32,834 nucleotides of DNA, taken from NCBI GenBank assembly GCA_017308215.1, contig JAFKFQ010000446.1, positions 1-32,834 on the forward strand, read 5' to 3'. The stretch comes from a bacterium (GTDB lineage: Bacteria > Planctomycetota > Planctomycetia > Gemmatales > Gemmataceae). The position numbers were made by a program, and so were the translations under genes. The notes beneath the pieces are model-generated. The model did not search any database. It saw only the letters and a program-made list of their open reading frames with translations, and had not been told where the DNA came from. This document shows positions 2,618-19,133 of the stretch, piece after piece (positions within the stretch are counted from its first letter, which is position 1; the number at the start of each line of letters is the position of its first letter).

Positions 2618-3655
2618 CTACCGCCAATCGAGTTCGCCGTAGGCCCAGTCGGCGATGAAGTTCCCCCGCCCGGACGCGAGTGTCTTCGGGTTCCGCCCGT
2701 CGGCGCCGGCGACGATCAGGTGCGTCTGCGTTTCGGGCGTCGTGTCGAGTTGGTCCTTGGCGAGAATGTGCGGGTAGAGGCGGAGCCAGGTGTAGGCAAC
2801 CCGCTTACCGTCCGGGGACCACGCCACTCCGATCGCCCGGGCGTTTTCGGGAAAGCCGGCCAGCGGCTCGCGCTTCCCGGTCGCCACGTCGAGCCGGTAC
2901 GGGCGGTGGCTCAGCTCCCACTTGTGGGCGTCCTTCTTCACCGGGTCACCGTCGGTAAACAGGACCGCCTTCCCGTCCGGGGAGAACCGCCCGACGATCG
3001 TACCGGCGGTGACCTGCAAGTCGGCGAGCGGCCGAACCTCGGCCGCCCCCGCCGCCGTCAGCCCGAGCTTCGCGGCCCGCCCCTTGCCCGTCCGGTGCTC
3101 GACCAGGAACGTCTTCCCGTCACGGGTCACGTCGAGCACCCGGCACCCGACCGGCAGGGCGAGCGGGGTCGTCTCGCCGGTGTCGGGGTCGAGCCGCACG
3201 GTGTCGTAGGCAGTCCGCCAGTGAGACGTGGCGATCCCCAGGATGATGCTCTTCCCGTCGGGCATCCACAGCGGTTCGAGGGCGAACCCGGAAACGTCGC
3301 GCACCTCGCGCAAGGCGAGTTCCCGGTCCACGCGGTTGAAAAGGATGCGCGCGGGCTCGGGCCGGGCAAGGACCGCCGGGCGGACGAGCAGCCGCACCTC
3401 GTCGTCCTTGCAGACGGTGAGCAGGAGTTGTCGGCCGTCCGGAGACACGGCGGCGCGGCCGCCGACCCACTTGATCCGCGCCTCTTTGAACTCGCCGCGC
3501 TTCGTGCCGTCCGGGTCGAACGCCGCGCACCCCAACGGCCGGGTGGCGACGATCACCCCCGGGCCGGCGGGCGCCCGAGGGGCTTTCTGTGCATCGGCCG
3601 TGGAGGCAACGGCGAGGGCCGCGAGCACGACCAGTGCGGGGGTGCGAAGCGACAT
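2618..3655 (-). CDS. Secreted PD40-like propeller protein without sigma domain
   Basis: This 345-residue protein is the odd member of the array. It has no sigma regions and starts with a signal peptide: a hydrophobic stretch at residues 5-17, then ASTADAQ as a probable cleavage region. Propeller blades follow, with FDPDGTKRGEF, SPDGRQLLLT, MPDGKSIILG, FSPDGKAVLF and WSPDGKRVAYTW motifs, and the same C-terminal LDWR as the sigma-fused members. ATG at 3655 has a GGAG eight bases upstream. The longer open frame upstream to 4387 only shadows the next gene. It starts 50 nt after the stop of the gene at 3706-5508 and its spacer lacks both the GACGCGCC block and a terminator, so co-transcription with that gene is likely. 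It might act as a soluble periplasmic partner or decoy for the membrane-bound paralogues (inference). Confidence 0.85.
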   Translation of the reverse strand: MSLRTPALVVLAALAVASTADAQKAPRAPAGPGVIVATRPLGCAAFDPDGTKRGEFKEARIKWVGGRAAVSPDGRQLLLTVCKDDEVRLLVRPAVLARPEPARILFNRVDRELALREVRDVSGFALEPLWMPDGKSIILGIATSHWRTAYDTVRLDPDTGETTPLALPVGCRVLDVTRDGKTFLVEHRTGKGRAAKLGLTAAGAAEVRPLADLQVTAGTIVGRFSPDGKAVLFTDGDPVKKDAHKWELSHRPYRLDVATGKREPLAGFPENARAIGVAWSPDGKRVAYTWLRLYPHILAKDQLDTTPETQTHLIVAGADGRNPKTLASGRGNFIADWAYGELDWR

Positions 3656-3705: not shown

Positions 3706-5508
3706 CTACCGCCAGTCCACGCCGTCGAGTGCGACCACGCTCTCGGACGCGCCGCGCTCCGTCAGGATCGTGAGTTGGTTGCCGCCGTCGGCGTCGCAGA
3801 CGGTGAGGTGACTCTGCGTCTCCCGGGCGGCGCCGTCCACCGCCGGCGGGTGGCGCTCCCGCCAGGTGTAGGCGATCCGCTTCCCGTCCGGCGACCAGCA
3901 GAAGCCCATGTAGTCGACGTTCAGCGGCACGTCCTTGAGCGGGGTCGCCGTCGAGGTCGCGGCGTCGATCACCACGAGTTGAACCCGCAGGAGTCGCGTG
4001 TCCAGGCCCAGGTTGTCCAGCCGGTCGTTCTCCTTCTCGTCCTCGTCGGGGGCGACGAGGCGCGCCGCCAGCACCCGCGTGCCGTCGGGCGAGAACTTCG
4101 ACGGGTGCCAGGACGTGTTCGCCGCGACCAGCCGCTTGCGCGGCGTGCCGTCGCGGTTCATCACCCAGACCCCGGCGGGCGGTCGGGGCTCGCCGAACCG
4201 GAACTCGGTGGTGAGGAAGAACCGGCCGTCGCGGGACCAGTCGGCGATGACGTGGTTGGCGGGGAGCTTGACCGGGGTGCGGGCCTTCGTCGCCGGCGTG
4301 TACAGGAAGTGGGTGATCGTCGTGTCCTTCGGGGTGGCGCCCTCGGCGACCGCGCTCACGGCTAGCTGCGTGCCGTCCCCGGACCACGCGACAGTGTGCT
4401 CACTCTCCCCCTCGCCCTCCACAGCCGTCAGGCGACCGCCTTCACCGAATTCGTGGATGAACACCCAGACCCCCGGGTGCTTGTCGTAGATGCCGTCGAC
4501 GGAGGACTTCGGACCCGCGACCCGCTTCCCGTCCGGCGAAACGACGAACATCCTCGTGCGATACCGCAGTGTCTCGGGCAGCACGGTCGCCTCGTTCTTC
4601 CCGGTCGGGTCGAGCGCGATAAGTCCCCAGTTGCGTGAGACGACGATCCGGTTCGGCCCGACGGGCGCCGGCGCGGCCTTCGGCGGGTCGGCCGCTACCC
4701 GAACGGCCGGAGGAGCGGGCGCCGGCGCGGGCGGCCCGGCGGACAGTCCGACGGCCAGCGCCGCCGACGCGACTACCGTCAGGACGAGCGACGCGAGCGG
4801 GATGCGATGGGAGATCATGGCGCGGCCGACTCCGTGTGCGAGGGCGGCGACCGCGGGCGAGACCCGTGCGCCGGAACCGAGGGCGGAGGCCGCCGATGCC
4901 AGCGCCGGCGGGACGGCGATCGGGGCGAGCAGTGCCGGGCCGAACCCGCGGGCCGCCAGCCGTTCGGCCAGCCGCTTCCGGGCCGCCCCGAGACGGCTGC
5001 TGAGCGTCCCTTCGGCGATGCCCAACTCTCGCGCCGCCGCGGCCCGCGACCGACCTTCGAGCTCGCACAGCACGACGGCGGCCCGGTACCACGGCGGCAG
5101 CCGCTCGACCTCCTCGACTACCGCCCGGGCCGCGTCCGGGTCGACCGGCTCCGCCGTCCGTTCCGGTACGTCCGGCACCGCCGCGACGAGGGTTTCCCGC
5201 TCCCGCCGCCGCCAGCCGCGGGCCGCGGCCTTCCGCGCCGCCCGCACCGCGACCCCGTACAGCCACCCGCCCACCGGGTCACCCGAACCAAGCCGGTCGG
5301 CCTTGCGGGCGAGTACCAGGAAGGCCGCCTGGAAGGCGTCCTCGGCGTCGTGGGCGTGGGCGGTGACGCGGCGGCAGACGGCCAGCACCATCGGCCCGTG
5401 GCGGCGCACCAGCTCGGCGAACGCCGCCCCGTCCCGCGCCGCGGCGAAGCGGGCGAGCAGGTCGGCGTCGGGCGTCGGGAGGACGAGTTTCGTCAGGGCG
5501 GCGAGAAT
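3706..5508 (-). CDS. ECF sigma factor with TM helix and propeller; probable ATT start
   Basis: The protein has 600 residues if it starts at ATT 5508: region 2 about 18-92, region 4 about 130-187, transmembrane helix about 236-255, then a propeller ending in VDWR. An in-frame TGA lies 14 codons upstream of the ATT, and no ATG, GTG or TTG lies between them. The first in-frame GTG (5409) sits inside the conserved ELVRRHGP motif and would remove 33 residues that every paralogue keeps. ATT is seven bases after a perfect GGAGG, exactly where the paralogues have ATG. A gene finder would probably call the shorter GTG form. The propeller contains an acidic insertion with DEDEKEND between blades. Its sigma half and 5' flank most resemble the gene at 5637-7424. 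Confidence 0.88.
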   Translation of the reverse strand: MLAALTKLVLPTPDADLLARFAAARDGAAFAELVRRHGPMVLAVCRRVTAHAHDAEDAFQAAFLVLARKADRLGSGDPVGGWLYGVAVRAARKAAARGWRRRERETLVAAVPDVPERTAEPVDPDAARAVVEEVERLPPWYRAAVVLCELEGRSRAAAARELGIAEGTLSSRLGAARKRLAERLAARGFGPALLAPIAVPPALASAASALGSGARVSPAVAALAHGVGRAMISHRIPLASLVLTVVASAALAVGLSAGPPAPAPAPPAVRVAADPPKAAPAPVGPNRIVVSRNWGLIALDPTGKNEATVLPETLRYRTRMFVVSPDGKRVAGPKSSVDGIYDKHPGVWVFIHEFGEGGRLTAVEGEGESEHTVAWSGDGTQLAVSAVAEGATPKDTTITHFLYTPATKARTPVKLPANHVIADWSRDGRFFLTTEFRFGEPRPPAGVWVMNRDGTPRKRLVAANTSWHPSKFSPDGTRVLAARLVAPDEDEKENDRLDNLGLDTRLLRVQLVVIDAATSTATPLKDVPLNVDYMGFCWSPDGKRIAYTWRERHPPAVDGAARETQSHLTVCDADGGNQLTILTERGASESVVALDGVDWR

Positions 5509-5515
5509 CGTCGGG

Positions 5516-5520
5516 CCTCC
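5516..5520 (-). promoter_or_regulatory. Shine-Dalgarno GGAGG preceding an ATT start
   Basis: GGAGG is separated by seven bases from ATT at 5508. It supports initiation at the ATT and not at the downstream GTG (5409), which has no comparable site. Confidence 0.65.
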
Positions 5521-5566
5521 GGGGCGGCACCGCGCCGCCCACCCCGCTCACTCCCCGGGGCGGCCC

Positions 5567-5574
5567 GGCGCGTC
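5567..5574 (-). promoter_or_regulatory. Array upstream block GACGCGCC (for the gene at 3706-5508)
   Basis: The octamer lies 58 nt upstream of the ATT at 5508. This matching distance independently supports the ATT as the true start. Confidence 0.45.
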
Positions 5575-5587
5575 GCGGAAAATGAAA

Positions 5588-5615
5588 AACCGGCCGGGGT
5601 CGGCCCCGACCGGCT
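5588..5615 (-). terminator. Terminator hairpin of the gene at 5637-7424
   Basis: Two 12-base GC-rich arms (5588-5599 and 5604-5615, two mismatches) flank a 4-nt loop. TTTCATTTTCC follows in the minus-strand direction. It lies 21 nt after the stop at 5637. Confidence 0.55.
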
Positions 5616-5636
5616 CAGCATCGCACGAGCGCGTGG

Positions 5637-7424
5637 TCACCGCCAGTCGATCCCCCACATGAGATCATCGTTGGTCCACTGCCCACTGACGGACAGAATC
5701 GACCGCGGGTTCTGCCCGTCGGCGTCGGCGACGACGAGCCAGTAGTGGCGCACCGGGCCGTTCGGCCCCCGCCCCTCGGGGAGGGCGGGGCTGACCGGGT
5801 GGTACGACTTGACGTAGGCGACCTGCCGCCCGTCCGGGGACCAACAGCACCAGGGGGCGCCGCCACCCGCGCGCGGCCACCCAGGCAGCCGAGTCGCCTG
5901 GCCCGTCCCCAGATCGAGTACCTCCAGCGTCCCCGGCACGGGCGCCGCGCCCCGGCGGACCCAGGCCAGCGCCCGAGTCCCGTCCGGGCTGAACCGGGCG
6001 TGCCGGCACCAGTCGTCCGCCCCGGTCAGCAGCCGGGCGCCGGTCCCGTCCCGGTTCACCAACCCGAGCCGGGTCACCTGACCGTTGCGGTTGTCGCCGC
6101 GGACGTTGACCGTGTGGGCGGTGAGGAACCGCCGCCCGTCGCGGGACCAGTCGATGACGACGTGGTTGTCCGGGAGCTTCAACTCGGTCCGGGCCTTGGT
6201 CCCGGTGTGGACCAGGAAGTGCCGGCTGTGGGGGCCGGTGGGCCGGTCCTCGTCCCCGGTGGCCACGAGGAGTTCCAGCCCCGTGGGCGACCAGACCGCG
6301 GTGGTCGGGTGCTCGAACACGCCCAGCTCGACGGGTTCGTGCTCCGCCCTCAGCCCGCGGACGAAGAGCCGGTAGAACCCGGCCCGGACGAGCCTGCCGT
6401 CTTCCGTGTCGGGGATGAAGACCGCGGGATTCAGTTCCACCACCGCCACCTGGTGCCCGTTCGGGGACACGGCGAACGGCGACACGAAATGGCCCGGCCG
6501 GGCCGGAAGGATGGTAGCGAGGTTCCGCCCGTCCGGGTCGACGCCGACGAGTTCGCCCTTCCGCATCACCACGATCCGGTTCGGCCCGACCGCCGCCCTC
6601 GGGGCAGGCCCGGCGGCCCGCACGGCCGGCGGCGCGGGCGGCCCGGAGGGCAAACCGACGGTCAGCGCCGCCGACGCGATTACCGTCAGGACGAGTGACG
6701 CGACCGGGATGCGACAGGGGATCATGGCGCGACCGACTCCGTGTGCGAGGGCAGCGACCGCGGGCGAGACCGGGGCGCCGGAACCGAGGACGGAGGCCGC
6801 GGCGGTCAGCCCAAGCGGGACGGCGACGCCGACGAGCGCCGCCAGCGCGGCCGGGCCGTACCCGCGGGCACGCAGTCGCGTCGCCAGTCGTTTCCGCGCC
6901 GCGGCGAGTCGGCTGCTGAGCGTCCCCTCGGCGACGCCGAGCTCCCGTGCCGCCGCGGCGCGCGGCCGGCCTTCCAGTTCGCACAGCACCACCGCGCCGC
7001 GGAGCACGTCGGGCAGCCGCCCGACCTCCTCGATGACAGCGCGGGCCGCCTCCGGGTCAACCGGCTCCGCCAGCCGTGCCGGTACGCCGTCGAGCTCGCC
7101 GCCGACGGCCTCGCGGCCGCGCCTCCGCCACGCCCGGCCCGCGGCCTTGCGGGCCACCCGCCCCGCCACCCCGACCAGCCAACCGCCCACCGAGTCGGCC
7201 GGGCTGAGCCGGTCGGCCTTGCGGGCGAGGACGACGAAGACCGCCTGGAAGGCGTCCTCGGCGTCCTGCGCGTGGCGGGTGAGCCGGCGGCACACGGCGA
7301 GCACGGCAGGCCCGTGGCGGCGGACGAGCTCGGCGAACGCCGCCCCGTCCCGCTCGGCGGCGAAGCGGACGAGCAGGTCCGCGTCGGTCGGCGGGGGAGC
7401 GAGCTTCGTCAGGACGGCGAGAAT
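5637..7424 (-). CDS. ECF sigma factor with TM helix and propeller; probable ATT start
   Basis: The protein has 595 residues from ATT 7424. Region 2 lies at about 18-95 (DAFQAVFVVLARKA, with GWLVGVAGRVARK in place of the usual GWLYGVAVR), region 4 at about 130-187, the transmembrane helix at about 240-258, and a propeller ends in IDWR. As in its neighbour, an in-frame TGA lies 14 codons upstream and no ATG, GTG or TTG intervenes. The next GTG (7304) would delete 40 conserved residues. The bases around the ATT (GGAGG, seven bases, ATT CTC GCC) match those of the gene at 3706-5508. Only 63 nt separate it from the stop of the gene at 7488-9266, with no terminator or GACGCGCC block, so those two may form one transcript. 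Confidence 0.87.
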   Translation of the reverse strand: MLAVLTKLAPPPTDADLLVRFAAERDGAAFAELVRRHGPAVLAVCRRLTRHAQDAEDAFQAVFVVLARKADRLSPADSVGGWLVGVAGRVARKAAGRAWRRRGREAVGGELDGVPARLAEPVDPEAARAVIEEVGRLPDVLRGAVVLCELEGRPRAAAARELGVAEGTLSSRLAAARKRLATRLRARGYGPAALAALVGVAVPLGLTAAASVLGSGAPVSPAVAALAHGVGRAMIPCRIPVASLVLTVIASAALTVGLPSGPPAPPAVRAAGPAPRAAVGPNRIVVMRKGELVGVDPDGRNLATILPARPGHFVSPFAVSPNGHQVAVVELNPAVFIPDTEDGRLVRAGFYRLFVRGLRAEHEPVELGVFEHPTTAVWSPTGLELLVATGDEDRPTGPHSRHFLVHTGTKARTELKLPDNHVVIDWSRDGRRFLTAHTVNVRGDNRNGQVTRLGLVNRDGTGARLLTGADDWCRHARFSPDGTRALAWVRRGAAPVPGTLEVLDLGTGQATRLPGWPRAGGGAPWCCWSPDGRQVAYVKSYHPVSPALPEGRGPNGPVRHYWLVVADADGQNPRSILSVSGQWTNDDLMWGIDWR

Positions 7425-7431
7425 CGTTGGG

Positions 7432-7436
7432 CCTCC
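7432..7436 (-). promoter_or_regulatory. Shine-Dalgarno GGAGG preceding a second ATT start
   Basis: GGAGG is seven bases upstream of ATT 7424. The arrangement is the same as at 5516-5520. Confidence 0.65.
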
Positions 7437-7487
7437 GGGGCGGCACCGCGCCGCCCGCCCGGGTCATGCCCCGGCACGCGGGCGGCG

Positions 7488-9266
7488 CTACCGCCAGTCG
7501 ATCGTCCCGAACGACCAGTTCGCCGCGGTGGACCGGTTGGAGGCGATCTCCGTCGCGTTCCGCCCGTCCGGGTCGCACACGATCGCCCGCAGCTCGATCT
7601 TCTGGTTCGGGTCCAGGTGGCCCGGCTTCGACTCGACCCTGTTCGACTGCCAGGTGTACGCGACCCGTCGGCCGTCCGGCGACCAGCAGCACCCGGCCAG
7701 GTGCCCGCCGGGCGGGATGCCTGCCACCGGCGTCGAGGTGCCGGTGACCAGGTCGAGCACCATCAGCGTGTCGGGGAGCCCGGCGGCGCCCGGCCGGTGG
7801 ACGTCGTAGAGCACGCGCCGGCCGTCGGGCGAGAACCGCCCGCCGCCGGCCTCCATCTTCGCCGGCGCGACGATCTCGCGCACCGTTTTCCCGTGCCGGT
7901 CGAGAATCCAGGTGCGAACTGCCTCGGGACCGTTCGGGCCGTAGGTGAACTGGGCCGTGAGGAACCGCTTCCCGTCGCGCGACCAGTCGGTGAGGTGGTG
8001 ACCGGCCGGGATCGGCAGCCGCGTGCGGCGGCCGGTCGCCACGTCCACGGCCTCGTGGCGGAGTTCGGCCGTTGCCAGCGCCTCGGCCTTCGGATCGGCG
8101 GTCGTCACCGCCAGGCGGGTGCCGTCGCCGGCCCAGAGGAAATCGAGGATCGCCCGCCCGTCGCCGAGGTCGGTCGCCGGGCCGGTGCCGTCGGCCGCGA
8201 ACACGAGCAGCTTGAACTCGCGGCGGTGCCGGTCGTCGGTGTTCCGCGCGTAGGCGACCGTCTTCCCGTCCGGCGAGAGCGCGCACGAGGTCGGGTGCGG
8301 GTCGCGGCAGTCCGGGTGCGTCACGACCCGGCTGTTGCGGCCGTCCGGGTCGCAGAGGTAGAAGTGGTCGCCCTGGCAGAAGAACAGCTTGTTCGGCCCC
8401 GCCACCGGCGCCGCAGCCCGCGGCGCCACGGGCCGCGGGACCACGGCCCGCGGCATAGGGACGGGCGGGGACGGCGATTCGGGTTGCGGGGCGGCGAGCG
8501 CGGCGGCCGCGGCCAGCGCGGCGAGAACGGGGGCGATCGAGAGTCGGGACACGTCCATGATCGGTAGCGCTCCACGGGCCAGGGTGCGGACCGCCGGGGG
8601 AACCCGGTCGGTGGAGGCGAGGAGGGCCGCCGCCGCGAGCCGGCGCGGGACGACGACCGGCGCCAGCGCCACGAGCGCGGCCGGGCCGAACCCGCGGGCG
8701 GTCAGACGGCGGGCGAGGTGCCTGCGCGCCGCGGCGAGCCGGCTGCTGAGCGTCCCCTCGGCGATCCCGAGCTCCCGCGCCGCGGCGGCGCGGGACCGGC
8801 CTTCGAGTTCGCACAGCACCACCGCCGCCCGGTACGCCGCCGACAGCCGCCCGACCTCCTCCAGCACCGCCCGCACCGCGTCCGGGTCGAACGGTTCCGT
8901 CGGTCGGTCCGGTACGTCGGGCACGTCGGCGGCCAGCGTTTCGTGGGCGCCGCGTCGCCACGCCCGGGCGGCGGCCTTGCGGGCGGTGCGGACCGCCGCG
9001 CCGAACAGCCACGACCCGAGCGGCACGCCCGGGCCGAGCCGGTCGGCCTTGCGGGCGAGGACAACGAAGACCGCCTGGAAGGCGTCCTCGGCGTCGTGGG
9101 CGTGACCGGTCAGGCGCCGACAGACCGCGAGTACGGCGGGACCGTGGCGGCGGACCAGTTCGGCGAACGCGCCGTCGTCCCGCTCGCGCGAATACCGCGC
9201 GAGCAGATCGGCGTCGGCCGGCGGGGTGAGCCGCCGGGCCAGTGCGGCGAGGGGTGCGGGTGCCAT
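7488..9266 (-). CDS. ECF sigma factor with TM helix and PD40-like propeller
   Basis: The 592-residue protein has region 2 at about 20-97 (DAFQAVFVVLARKA, SWLFGAAVRTARKA), region 4 at about 130-190, a short Ala-rich transmembrane helix at about 242-259, and a propeller from about 285. Blades carry LSPDGKTVAY, DWSRDGKRFLTA, FSPDGRRVLY and WSPDGRRVAYTW, and the chain ends in IDWR. The linker before the helix is more divergent than elsewhere (LLASTDRVPPAVRTLARG). The ATG start sits at the array-typical position. The first residues RYSRERD are shared with the gene at 9621-11669, so the sigma halves of these two are close relatives. Confidence 0.92.
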   Translation of the reverse strand: MAPAPLAALARRLTPPADADLLARYSRERDDGAFAELVRRHGPAVLAVCRRLTGHAHDAEDAFQAVFVVLARKADRLGPGVPLGSWLFGAAVRTARKAAARAWRRGAHETLAADVPDVPDRPTEPFDPDAVRAVLEEVGRLSAAYRAAVVLCELEGRSRAAAARELGIAEGTLSSRLAAARRHLARRLTARGFGPAALVALAPVVVPRRLAAAALLASTDRVPPAVRTLARGALPIMDVSRLSIAPVLAALAAAAALAAPQPESPSPPVPMPRAVVPRPVAPRAAAPVAGPNKLFFCQGDHFYLCDPDGRNSRVVTHPDCRDPHPTSCALSPDGKTVAYARNTDDRHRREFKLLVFAADGTGPATDLGDGRAILDFLWAGDGTRLAVTTADPKAEALATAELRHEAVDVATGRRTRLPIPAGHHLTDWSRDGKRFLTAQFTYGPNGPEAVRTWILDRHGKTVREIVAPAKMEAGGGRFSPDGRRVLYDVHRPGAAGLPDTLMVLDLVTGTSTPVAGIPPGGHLAGCCWSPDGRRVAYTWQSNRVESKPGHLDPNQKIELRAIVCDPDGRNATEIASNRSTAANWSFGTIDWR

Positions 9267-11773: not shown

Positions 11774-12880
11774 TCACCGCCAGTCCACGCCGGCGACCGT
11801 GACCGCCCCCGCGGTCGGGCTCGTACCGGTAGCGAGCGTCCGCGGGTTCCCCCCGTCCGGGTCGCACGCCACCAGCGCTGACTCCGACCCACCGCCCCGC
11901 GCCGGCCGCGTCCGGGCGTAGGCGACTCGTCGGCCGTCCGGCGACCAGCAGTAGCCGTGGATGCCCACGTCGTCCGGCACGCTCGCCACCCGGGTGGTCT
12001 GGCCGGTCGCCACGTCCGCCACGACCAGCCGGTACGGCTCCGCCCCGACCCGCTTCGCCAGGGGTTCGAGCTTCAGACACAGCACCCGCCGGTCGTCGGG
12101 TGAGAGCCGGCCGTCGATCAGCATCTCGCCCGGCGGGTTGACCCGCGCGTGCCGCGTCCCGTCCGGGCGCCACAGTGCCAGCCGTAGAAACTCGTCCGGC
12201 TCTCGGGCGGCGGACACCACCGACTGGGTGAGGTACAGTGTCCCGTCGCGGGTCCGGTCGGTGAGGAGTTGATCGGCCGGCAGGCGGAGCGGCGCCGCGG
12301 CGGCGTCGGCCACGGTCACGACGGCGTGCTCGAAGCCGAACTCCGGCCGACCCGCGGCGGGTGGGGTGAGCGTCGAGACGGCGAGGGCCGTCCCGTCCGG
12401 GGTCCAGGTGTAGGACTCGGCGGTGCGGCCGAGGTCGGTCCGCGACCCGGTCCCGTCGGTGCGGCGGACGTACAGCCGCAGGTTGGAGGGGTCGTCCGGG
12501 TCGTTCGCCCGGGCGCCGGGCGGGCGGACGCGGTACGCCACCCGCGACCCGTCCGGCGACAGCCGCGGGCGGGCGTCGTGGCCCACGGTCTCGCCGGCGG
12601 GGGTAATCGGGGTAGAGTTCTTACCGTCCGGGTCCAACCGAACGAGCCGATTGTTCACGACGGCAACAATGCGGGGCGCGGCGGCCGGCAGCGGGTCGGC
12701 CTTCGGGGGCGGGGCGGCAGGGGCAGACTGCAACGCTGCGGACAGACCGACGGTGACCCCGATAACCGCGGCGACCGCCAGCGCGACCGGCAGGAGTTTG
12801 CGGAGGAGCATGGTGCGAAGAACCTCGTGGGCCAGGGCCGCGACCGCGGCCGGTTGCGCTTCACCGGAGGCAGGTGCCAC
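11774..12880 (-). CDS. TM helix and propeller half of a frameshifted array member
   Basis: These 368 codons begin at a GTG and encode an Ala-rich linker, one transmembrane helix at about residues 29-50, and a propeller with LSPDGSRVAYR, TPDGTALAVS, LSPDDRRVLC and WSPDGRRVAY blades ending in VDWR. The frame differs from that of the sigma half at 12861-13496, which it overlaps by 20 bases. Compared with paralogues, about ten codons of the linker are missing at the junction and the frame is lost. No Shine-Dalgarno precedes the GTG. It is either the downstream part of a pseudogene or, less likely, a separately initiated or frameshifted membrane propeller. A sequencing error is also possible. Confidence 0.7.
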   Translation of the reverse strand: MAPASGEAQPAAVAALAHEVLRTMLLRKLLPVALAVAAVIGVTVGLSAALQSAPAAPPPKADPLPAAAPRIVAVVNNRLVRLDPDGKNSTPITPAGETVGHDARPRLSPDGSRVAYRVRPPGARANDPDDPSNLRLYVRRTDGTGSRTDLGRTAESYTWTPDGTALAVSTLTPPAAGRPEFGFEHAVVTVADAAAAPLRLPADQLLTDRTRDGTLYLTQSVVSAAREPDEFLRLALWRPDGTRHARVNPPGEMLIDGRLSPDDRRVLCLKLEPLAKRVGAEPYRLVVADVATGQTTRVASVPDDVGIHGYCWSPDGRRVAYARTRPARGGGSESALVACDPDGGNPRTLATGTSPTAGAVTVAGVDWR

Positions 12881-13496
12881 GGCGCTCGACGCCGACGAGT
12901 GCTGCCAGCGCCGCCGGGCCGAACCCGCGGGCGCTCAATCGCCGGGCGAGGTGCTTGCGCGCCTCGGCGAGTCGGCTGCTGAGCGTCCCTTCGGCGATGC
13001 CCAGCTCTCGCGCCGCCGCCGCGCGCGAGCGGCCTTCGAGCTCGCACAGCACGACCGCGGCGCGGTACTTCGCCGACAGGCGATTCACTTCCTCCATCAC
13101 CACCCGGGACGCGTCCGGGTCGACCGGCTCCGCCGGTCGGTCGGGCACATCGGGAAGGTCGGCCATCAGTGTCTCGCGCTCGTGGCGGCGGAACGTCCGC
13201 ACCGCGGCCTTGCGGGCGGCGCGGACGGCGACGCCGTACAGCCACGCAGCCAGCGGCTCACCGGCGCGGACGCGGTGCGCCTTGCGGGCGAGCACCAGGA
13301 ACGCCGCCTGGAAGGCGTCCTCGGCGTCGTGGGTGCGGGTGGGGACGCGGCGGCACACGGCGAGGACGGCCGGGCCGTGGCGGCGGACGAGTTCGGCGAA
13401 CGCCGCCTCGTCGCGCGCCGCGACGAACCGCCCGAGCAGGTCGGCGTCGGCCGGCGCATCGGGGGCGACGGCTCGGAGGAGCCGGGCGGCGGGCAT
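12861..13496 (-). CDS. ECF sigma half of a frameshifted array member
   Basis: The frame encodes 211 residues with region 2 at about 18-90 (DAFQAAFLVLARKA, AAWLYGVAVRAARKA) and region 4 at about 128-185 (CELEGRSRAAAARELGIAEGTLSSRL). It then reads LAALVGV like its paralogues, shifts to ERRGTCLR and stops. The ATG at 13496 is at the normal place. As it stands, the product would be a soluble ECF sigma factor freed from membrane helix and propeller. If expressed, it could be constitutively active (inference). Confidence 0.8.
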   Translation of the reverse strand: MPAARLLRAVAPDAPADADLLGRFVAARDEAAFAELVRRHGPAVLAVCRRVPTRTHDAEDAFQAAFLVLARKAHRVRAGEPLAAWLYGVAVRAARKAAVRTFRRHERETLMADLPDVPDRPAEPVDPDASRVVMEEVNRLSAKYRAAVVLCELEGRSRAAAARELGIAEGTLSSRLAEARKHLARRLSARGFGPAALAALVGVERRGTCLR

Positions 13497-13557
13497 CCGG
13501 TGGTCTCCGCGGGACGACCGCCGGGCCGCCCACCGGGGTATCCCCCGTGACCAGCCC

Positions 13558-13565
13558 CGCGCGTC
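13558..13565 (-). promoter_or_regulatory. Variant array block GACGCGCG
   Basis: The plus strand reads CGCGCGTC, one base off the consensus, 61 nt upstream of the ATG at 13496. Confidence 0.35.
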
Positions 13566-13598
13566 GGTCGGGCACCGGATTTTCGCCCGCCGCCGGCG

Positions 13599-17330: not shown

Positions 17331-19133
17331 TCAGCGCCAGTCCGGGATGCCGAGGGTGAGGATCCACTGGCCCTGGCCCTTCTCGGTCAGGACCGTGCGC
17401 GGGTTCCGCCCGTCCGGGTCGGCCACGATCAGATGCGACTCGGTCTCCTTCATCAGCCGGTCTTCCTGCGTCCCCTCGTGGATCTGGCGCCAAGTGTAGG
17501 CGATCTTCGTCCCGTCCGGGGACCAGCAGAACCCCTGGAGCTCGGCGTTGAGCGGGATCCCGTCGACCGGCGCCCGCTTGCCGGTGGCCGTGTCCAGCAG
17601 CACGAGCGTCCGCCGCCCGTTGGGCAGGGCGTTCCTCGTCGGCCGCGGCACGTCGCAGCACAGCACCCGCTTCCCGTCCGGCGACGGGAGCCCGAACCCG
17701 GTCAGCGTCTTCTCGTCGGTCAGCGCCTTGTGCTCGGTCCCGTCCACGTTCATCAGGTGGAGGCGGATCCGCGGCGCTTCTTCGGTACCGCCCAGACTGG
17801 TCGTCAGGAGCTTGTCGCCGGGAACCCAGCCGGTGATCACGTGGTCCGACGGGAGCTTCAGCGTGGTCGTCTTCCCCGTGCCGGCGTCCACCAGCAGGTG
17901 CGTCGCCTCGGGCGGGCCGTTCCCCCTATTGGCGACCGCGCACGCGGCCAACTTCGTGCCGTCCGGCGACCAGGCGTACACCTCGCACTCGGCCTCGGTC
18001 TCGACCACCGGCCCCTTCCCGCCGACCGGGCGGATGACCAGCTTTCGCCGCTGCTGCTGCCCGGGCGGGGTGTCCTCGATCTTCCCGACGAGCTGGAGGA
18101 ACGCGACCCGCGTCCCGTCCGGGGAGAGCTTGGCGTCGAGGGACGGGAGGGACGCGGGCGACCCCTCGAAGGCGACCGTCTCGTTCTTCCCGTCCGGGTC
18201 GAGGAGGACGAGCTTGCGGTTCTTGTAGACGAGAATCTTGTTCGGCCCCTTCGGGAGCGGCCGCGGCGCGGCCTTCGCCGCGGGAGGCTGAACCGCGACG
18301 GAGGCCGCGGGGATCGCCGAGGCGGCGGGAATCGGCGGCGCGTCAGCGGCCGGCGGCGCCGCGAAGAGGCCGGCGGCGAGCGCCGCTGACGCGACCGCGG
18401 CGAGCGGGATGAGGAGCAGTTTCGGACGGATCATGGCGTGACCGACTCCGCGTGCGAGGGCGGCGACCGCGGCGGGAGCCGGGGCGCCGGAACCGAGAGC
18501 GGAGGTCGCGGACGCCAGCCCGGGCGGGACAGCGACGCCGGCGAAGATCGCCAGCGCGGCTGGGGCGAGTCCGCGGGCGGCGAGGCGGTCGGCGAGCTGC
18601 TTGCGGGCGGCGGCGAGGCGGCTGCTGAGCGTCCCCTCGGCGATCCCGAGCTCCCGCGCCGCCGCCGCCCGCGACCGCCCCTCCAACTCGCACAGCACCA
18701 CCGCCGCCCGGTACGCCGCCGACAGCTGCCCCACCTCGTCGAGTACGGCGCGGGCCGCGTCCGGGTCGAACGGGTCCGCCGCTCGGGCCGGCACGTCCGG
18801 CACGTCCCCCGTCGCCTCGCGCCGCCGCCACGGCCGCTCCGCCGCCCGCCGCGAGACGCGCACCGCCACCCCGTACAACCACGCCCCGAGCGGGTCGCCG
18901 GGGCGGACCGACCCGGCGCGGCGGGCGAGCACGAGGAACGCCGACTGGAAGGCGTCTTCCGCGTCGTGGGTGTGGCGGGTGACGCTCCGGCACACCGCGA
19001 GGACCGCGGGGCCGTGGCGGCGGACGAGTTCGGCGAACGCCGCCTCGTCACGGCCGGCGACGAACCGGCCGAGCAACTCGGCGTCGGTCGGCGCCACGAC
19101 GAGCGGGCCGAGCCGGGCGGCGAGGCGGGACAT
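17331..19133 (-). CDS. ECF sigma factor with TM helix and PD40-like propeller
   Basis: The 600-residue protein has region 2 at about 20-98 (DAFQSAFLVLARRA), region 4 at about 130-186, the transmembrane helix at about 237-256, and a propeller ending in PDWR. The sigma half pairs with the gene at 15410-17224. The propeller half pairs instead with the genes at 19235-21052 and 21184-23034: all three share KGPNKIL or KGPSKIL at the first strand, WSPDGTKIAYTWRQ or close variants, and the KETES or KETEW segment. It is therefore a mosaic. In one blade, GWVPGDKLLTTS replaces the usual DWSRDGRFLT. Confidence 0.92.
   Translation of the reverse strand: MSRLAARLGPLVVAPTDAELLGRFVAGRDEAAFAELVRRHGPAVLAVCRSVTRHTHDAEDAFQSAFLVLARRAGSVRPGDPLGAWLYGVAVRVSRRAAERPWRRREATGDVPDVPARAADPFDPDAARAVLDEVGQLSAAYRAAVVLCELEGRSRAAAARELGIAEGTLSSRLAAARKQLADRLAARGLAPAALAIFAGVAVPPGLASATSALGSGAPAPAAVAALARGVGHAMIRPKLLLIPLAAVASAALAAGLFAAPPAADAPPIPAASAIPAASVAVQPPAAKAAPRPLPKGPNKILVYKNRKLVLLDPDGKNETVAFEGSPASLPSLDAKLSPDGTRVAFLQLVGKIEDTPPGQQQRRKLVIRPVGGKGPVVETEAECEVYAWSPDGTKLAACAVANRGNGPPEATHLLVDAGTGKTTTLKLPSDHVITGWVPGDKLLTTSLGGTEEAPRIRLHLMNVDGTEHKALTDEKTLTGFGLPSPDGKRVLCCDVPRPTRNALPNGRRTLVLLDTATGKRAPVDGIPLNAELQGFCWSPDGTKIAYTWRQIHEGTQEDRLMKETESHLIVADPDGRNPRTVLTEKGQGQWILTLGIPDWR

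What the first reader, a model, noticed from the sequence alone, without database searches (positions are those of the whole stretch)
5506..7424. Two paralogues with apparent ATT start codons
The genes ending at 5508 and 7424 have ATT where paralogues have ATG, each seven bases after a perfect GGAGG. In both, an in-frame TGA lies 14 codons upstream with no ATG, GTG or TTG between. The next GTG codons would delete 33 and 40 conserved residues. ATT initiation is rare and is best known from infC, where it is used for autoregulation by IF3. Here it may keep expression of two sigma factors low.
Basis: partly seen in the sequence, partly recalled or inferred. Interest (0 to 1): 0.65.

Follow-up and report, generated by a model that had tools for sequence, protein, structure and literature searches.

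The report
Two sigma genes starting at ATT
Two neighbouring bacterial regulator genes seem to begin with the rare start signal ATT instead of ATG, probably because of one local mutation shared between the two copies, which should make the cell produce little of both proteins.

Summary
Genes A (3706-5508, minus) and B (5637-7424, minus) have ATT 7 nt after GGAGG, an in-frame TGA 14 codons upstream and no ATG/GTG/TTG between; the next GTG would cost 33 and 40 residues. It is unusual: A and B are the only two of 597 gene models in 0.96 Mb of this genome with a Shine-Dalgarno-spaced near-cognate codon and no usual start, and none of 226 other scoreable family members shows this. Two corrections. 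(1) ATT matches the paralogues' ATG in spacing from GGAGG, but by residue it aligns with an internal codon 3-4 positions downstream; A and B have the shortest N-termini. (2) The cases are not independent: leaders are 34/35 identical and the genes are mosaic, so ATT is one event shared by duplication or gene conversion. Close relatives start with ATG or GTG, so this is local. Both proteins are intact at family-conserved sites, so true AUU initiation is the likeliest reading. Low, IF3-sensitive translation follows from known biology (infC; Streptomyces sigR with a GTC start); selection for it is unproven. infC of the same genus starts with ATC.

The parts
3706..5508 (-). Gene A: ECF sigma factor with hydrophobic segment and C-terminal PD40 propeller, 600 aa if started at ATT
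   Evidence: PF04542 46.3 bits, PF08281 40.5 bits, PF07676 35.4 bits, all over cut-off
5637..7424 (-). Gene B: paralogue of A, 595 aa if started at ATT
   Evidence: PF04542 44.5 bits, PF08281 32 bits, over cut-off; no PD40 match at E<=0.001
5506..5508 (-). ATT, apparent start codon of A
7422..7424 (-). ATT, apparent start codon of B
5516..5520 (-). GGAGG Shine-Dalgarno of A, 7 nt before ATT
7432..7436 (-). GGAGG Shine-Dalgarno of B, 7 nt before ATT
5522..5540 (-). Inverted repeat GGGCGGC-GCGGT-GCCGCCC, one base 5' of the Shine-Dalgarno of A
   Evidence: the minimum-energy fold of the isolated leader does not form it as a simple hairpin
7438..7456 (-). Same inverted repeat before B
5548..5550 (-). 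In-frame TGA 14 codons upstream of ATT in A
7464..7466 (-). In-frame TGA 14 codons upstream of ATT in B
5407..5409 (-). First downstream in-frame GTG in A (rival start)
7302..7304 (-). First downstream in-frame GTG in B (rival start)

Best explanation
Genes A and B are intact members of a tandem array of planctomycete ECF-sigma/PD40 genes, and both are translated from an AUU codon placed 7 nt after a perfect GGAGG. The AUU start arose once, probably when a small in-frame deletion removed the original ATG and a few codons and left an ATN codon at Shine-Dalgarno distance. It is shared by the two neighbours through duplication or gene conversion of the 5' end. Initiator fMet-tRNA mispairs with AUU at the third base, so translation should be weak and sensitive to IF3. 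Shown: the sequence, its rarity, the shared leader, the intact protein. Inferred: use of AUU, the deletion, low output, IF3 sensitivity. Not shown: that low output was selected.
For: No canonical start in either gene, while 223 of 228 scoreable family N-termini have one 20-60 codons before the reference Phe. In a homology-free scan, 2 of 597 gene models had an SD-spaced near-cognate codon and no canonical start, and they are A and B. The leader from the inverted repeat to ATT differs at 1 of 35 positions between A and B, against 94 of 241 four-fold sites in residues 20-600; Fisher p 2.6e-6. At 54 columns conserved in at least 80% of the family A deviates at 0 and B at 2, median 4 for 113 other own-plus-genus members, so neither protein is decaying. 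Mosaic: A and B are 83-92% identical in the first 40 aligned codon columns and 90-92% at columns 220-260, while A is closest to the gene starting at 2534 in parts of the middle; sigma-domain trees place A with that gene (91 and 89% support) and not with B. infC of the same genus starts with ATC in 4 of 4 genomes read, so the lineage can start at ATN codons.
Against: No other family member has an ATT start. No expression or peptide evidence. The shared leader may be recent, so persistence of ATT is not demonstrated. Open frames are weak evidence at this G+C: neutral decay over half the A-B distance would leave no stop with probability 0.16 per gene. The array holds at least one apparently broken member.
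Confidence: 0.62

Rival explanations
1. Start-loss: the original start was lost recently in one array member and copied to its neighbour; A and B are now essentially silent and on the way to pseudogenes, with ATT at Shine-Dalgarno distance by accident.
For: The ATT is local to this genome; paralogues are abundant (99 matches in this genome); a neighbouring paralogue appears frameshifted between its sigma and PD40 parts. The leader is nearly identical between A and B, so the event may be recent.
Against: A and B are at least as conserved at family sites as canonical members. ATT makes up 0.20% of trinucleotides, so an accidental ATT exactly at the spaced site is unlikely. A strong GGAGG is kept.
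Confidence: 0.2
2. Translation starts at the downstream GTG (5409 in A, 7304 in B), giving proteins 33 and 40 residues shorter.
For: GTG is a common start here (191 of 588 models given a start by the scan).
Against: It would delete family columns conserved at 0.81-0.98; the two GTGs are not at homologous positions, and SD-backed starts in own and same-genus members lie 31-50 codons before the reference Phe.
Confidence: 0.07
3. Start at another near-cognate codon, CTG four codons after ATT in both genes.
For: CTG is present at the same place in both genes.
Against: It is 19 nt from GGAGG, too far for ordinary Shine-Dalgarno pairing (recalled rule), and it would shorten the N-terminus further.
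Confidence: 0.04
4. Translation starts at GTG 5551 (A) or ATG 7467 (B) in another frame and enters the sigma frame by a +1 shift in the leader.
For: Both genes have such an overlapping frame starting at the same place and overlapping the in-frame TGA.
Against: No well-spaced Shine-Dalgarno before those codons by eye; overlapping open frames are common at 74% G+C; paralogues initiate directly with ATG after GGAGG.
Confidence: 0.04
5. Sequencing or assembly error in a fragmented assembly.
For: The genome is 766 contigs and 85% complete; the site lies beside a G+C-rich inverted repeat.
Against: Two copies with different surroundings, at distinguishable places, carry the same codon.
Confidence: 0.03

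Closest known systems
Streptomyces sigR (sigma factor with a GTC start repressed by IF3; PMC5472188)
   Same: A sigma-factor gene of ECF type (type recalled) with a strong Shine-Dalgarno followed by a start codon outside ATG/GTG/TTG, expected to lower translation.
   Different: Codon is ATT, not GTC; the proteins carry a C-terminal PD40 part in a paralogue array, whereas sigR has a separate anti-sigma factor; not conserved across species, whereas sigR GTC is in 32 of 34 Streptomyces (paper passages); no experiment here.
infC (IF3) with ATT or ATC start
   Same: ATN start behind a Shine-Dalgarno; infC of the same genus uses ATC.
   Different: infC is conserved and autoregulates; A and B are unrelated genes and local to one genome.
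Listeria rsbW ATG-to-ATT/ATA mutants (PMC13068326)
   Same: A local mutation to ATT in a sigma-factor regulatory gene lowers but does not abolish translation (passages).
   Different: Selected point mutation in an anti-sigma factor; here shared by two natural paralogues and probably involving a deletion.

Membership tests
Genes with an IF3-discriminated non-canonical start (infC/sigR type) | No ATG/GTG/TTG at a plausible start position | tested here: met
Genes with an IF3-discriminated non-canonical start (infC/sigR type) | Near-cognate codon at normal Shine-Dalgarno spacing | tested here: met
   GGAGG-N7-ATT in both
Genes with an IF3-discriminated non-canonical start (infC/sigR type) | Non-canonical start conserved in orthologues | tested here: not met
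   none of 226 other scoreable members has it (three of them also lack a canonical start but by eye show no SD-spaced ATT); closest relatives ATG or GTG
Genes with an IF3-discriminated non-canonical start (infC/sigR type) | Output falls with more IF3 and rises with ATG or IF3 fidelity mutants | not testable with these tools
   needs reporters in a host
ECF sigma factors with C-terminal PD40 propeller | Sigma-70 region 2 and region 4 domains | tested here: met
   both over cut-off in A and B; TIGR02937 over cut-off in both
ECF sigma factors with C-terminal PD40 propeller | PD40 repeats | tested here: inconclusive
   A over cut-off; B no match at E<=0.001 though alignable to A over its length

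The most novel reading that the evidence does not exclude
A planctomycete has put two array-encoded ECF sigma factors under AUU/IF3 translational control, a second and independent case, after Streptomyces sigR, of sigma-factor dose being set at the start codon, here spread between paralogues by gene conversion of the leader.
Probability: 0.22. Interest if true: 0.6.

Novelty: new member of a known kind. Interest (0 to 1): 0.36.

Why it matters
If AUU is used, annotation that allows only ATG/GTG/TTG truncates both proteins inside a conserved sigma region, and a natural pair of paralogues offers a direct test of whether weak start codons tune sigma-factor dosage. If it is a start loss spread by gene conversion, it shows how paralogue arrays can lose expression together.

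Tried and rejected
A scan of genome contigs gave no closer orthologue: the 80 loci kept are 34-58% identical over the matched segment, and the tool says records of the window's own or a very near genome may be left out. The dN/dS route was weaker than hoped: A-B sigma 0.38, rest 0.93, but pairs of ATG genes also give 0.66-1.12 outside the sigma part, and codon bias makes the estimate rough. A neutral-decay simulation gave only weak evidence because stops are rare at this composition. The idea that A and B are simple sister duplicates that have held ATT since duplication was dropped after the trees and the window comparison. Folding of the leaders was uninformative. Other SD-spaced ATT/ATC places with no canonical codon upstream in frame were listed in the sample (13 places); for several the next canonical codon lies within 11 codons; none was followed up. 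Paper searches on ATT or non-canonical starts, on sigma factors with unusual starts and on planctomycete ECF/WD40 proteins listed no planctomycete case of an ATT-started sigma gene by title and abstract start; this covers open-licence PMC papers only.

Full report
WHAT IS THERE. Both codons are exactly as described. Read on the minus strand, each gene has GGAGG, a 7-nt spacer (CCCGACG in A, CCCAACG in B), ATT, then CTC GCC. An in-frame TGA lies 14 codons upstream. The next GTG would remove 33 (A) or 40 (B) residues. The proteins are ECF sigma factors (PF04542 and PF08281 over cut-off in both) with a C-terminal PD40 propeller (over cut-off in A; no match at E<=0.001 in B). They sit in a tandem array of paralogues that fills about 24 kb of the contig; the window is the whole contig C175 of a 9.0-Mb, 766-contig genome. 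Named relatives found by protein search are Gemmataceae and other Planctomycetota.

IS IT UNUSUAL. I built a profile of the N-terminal region and scored the distance from each possible start to a reference Phe in 272 records. Of 230 distinct N-termini, 2 were cut by contig ends. Of the 228 left, 5 have no ATG/GTG/TTG 20-60 codons before the Phe: A, B, L195, L239 and L251. By eye L251 is not homologous upstream and L239 has a frame open far upstream; none of these three shows an SD-spaced ATT. Independently of homology, a codon-usage gene finder on 959,191 bases of this genome, the window included (the largest contigs I knew of plus contigs 1-20, so not a random sample), gave 597 gene models. 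Nine had no canonical start near the coding edge, and only A and B of these had an SD-spaced ATT, ATC, ATA or CTG. ATT is 0.20% of trinucleotides in the sample.

WHAT THE CODON ALIGNS WITH. The genes starting at 19133 and 17224 have GGAGG-N7-ATG, so by spacing ATT replaces ATG. Counted from the conserved Phe, however, ATT is 29 codons away, while SD-backed canonical starts in own and same-genus members lie 31-50 away. The ATGs of the array paralogues starting at 2534, 9266 and 19133 are 32 or 33 codons away. ATT therefore matches, by residue, an internal position; Leu is the commonest residue there (30 of 115). The simplest history is a small in-frame deletion that removed the ATG and left an ATN codon at Shine-Dalgarno distance. 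This is inference and the exact path cannot be fixed.

ONE EVENT, NOT TWO. From the inverted repeat to ATT, A and B differ at 1 of 35 positions; four-fold sites of the whole genes differ at 95 of 251. The match is high in the first 40 aligned codon columns and again at columns 220-260 (90-92%), but in between A is closest to the gene starting at 2534 in places and B to the gene starting at 9266. Trees of the sigma domain (32 sequences) put A with the 2534 gene (support 91 protein, 89 nucleotide) and B with a GTG-started gene of another species (75, 68), not with each other. The 5' end has thus been shared by duplication plus later conversion, or by conversion alone. In the ATG pair 19133/17224 one alignment window over the start is also identical (58 of 58), so a conserved leader is not special to ATT.

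ARE THE GENES ALIVE. At columns conserved in at least 80% of the family (224 sequences aligned), A deviates at 0 of 54 and B at 2 of 54; the median of 113 other own-plus-genus members is 4. Sigma-part dN/dS for A-B is 0.38 by a simple count. Against this, lack of stops is weak evidence at this base composition, the shared leader may be recent, and the paralogue at 12861-13598 appears frameshifted against its PD40 part. So decay is not visible in A and B, but it cannot be excluded that initiation was lost recently.

CAN THIS LINEAGE START AT ATN. Searching IF3_N in 29 genomes gave matches in 25; the own genome has none, probably because it is incomplete. Of 25 infC loci, 22 could be read with my motif. 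By eye 19 of 22 have ATC or ATT as the evident start, one has TTG, two are unclear. All four same-genus loci read have ATC. So ATN initiation of infC is normal in this group.

CLOSEST PRECEDENT. Streptomyces sigR has a GTC start repressed by IF3, and changing it to a canonical codon overproduces SigR (PMC5472188: abstract, passages and one section read). In Listeria, rsbW with ATT is translated less than with ATA or ATG (PMC13068326: passages). By analogy A and B should be made at a low, IF3-sensitive level. Unlike sigR, the codon is not conserved: none of 226 other scoreable members has it. The case is therefore a candidate new member of a known kind, with regulation unproven.

Noticed in passing
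window 11774-13598, minus: A paralogue whose sigma part (12861-13598) and PD40 part (11774-12934) lie in different frames: a broken array member or an assembly indel.
   Followed up: partly
window array, minus-strand leaders before 2534, 17224, 19133, 21052: A GGGCGGC-loop-GCCGCCC type inverted repeat sits directly 5' of the Shine-Dalgarno in several array members, with variants that keep pairing (by eye).
   Followed up: partly
window 732-24405, minus: 12 of the 13 minus-strand gene models here end in the same residues, DWR, before the stop; the exception is the broken sigma part at 12861.
   Followed up: no
window array: Outside the sigma domain, dN/dS between seven array paralogues is 0.65-1.13 against 0.19-0.68 in the sigma part: the propeller is diversifying or relaxed.
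   Followed up: partly
window 5585-5615, minus: Terminator-like G+C-rich inverted repeat followed by a T-run between the end of B and the start of A (by eye).
   Followed up: no
L107-L131 (infC loci of relatives): infC in planctomycete relatives starts with ATC or ATT in 19 of 22 loci read, by eye; one has TTG.
   Followed up: partly
window 2618-3625, minus: A PD40 protein without sigma domain and with a signal-like N-terminus inside the array.
   Followed up: no
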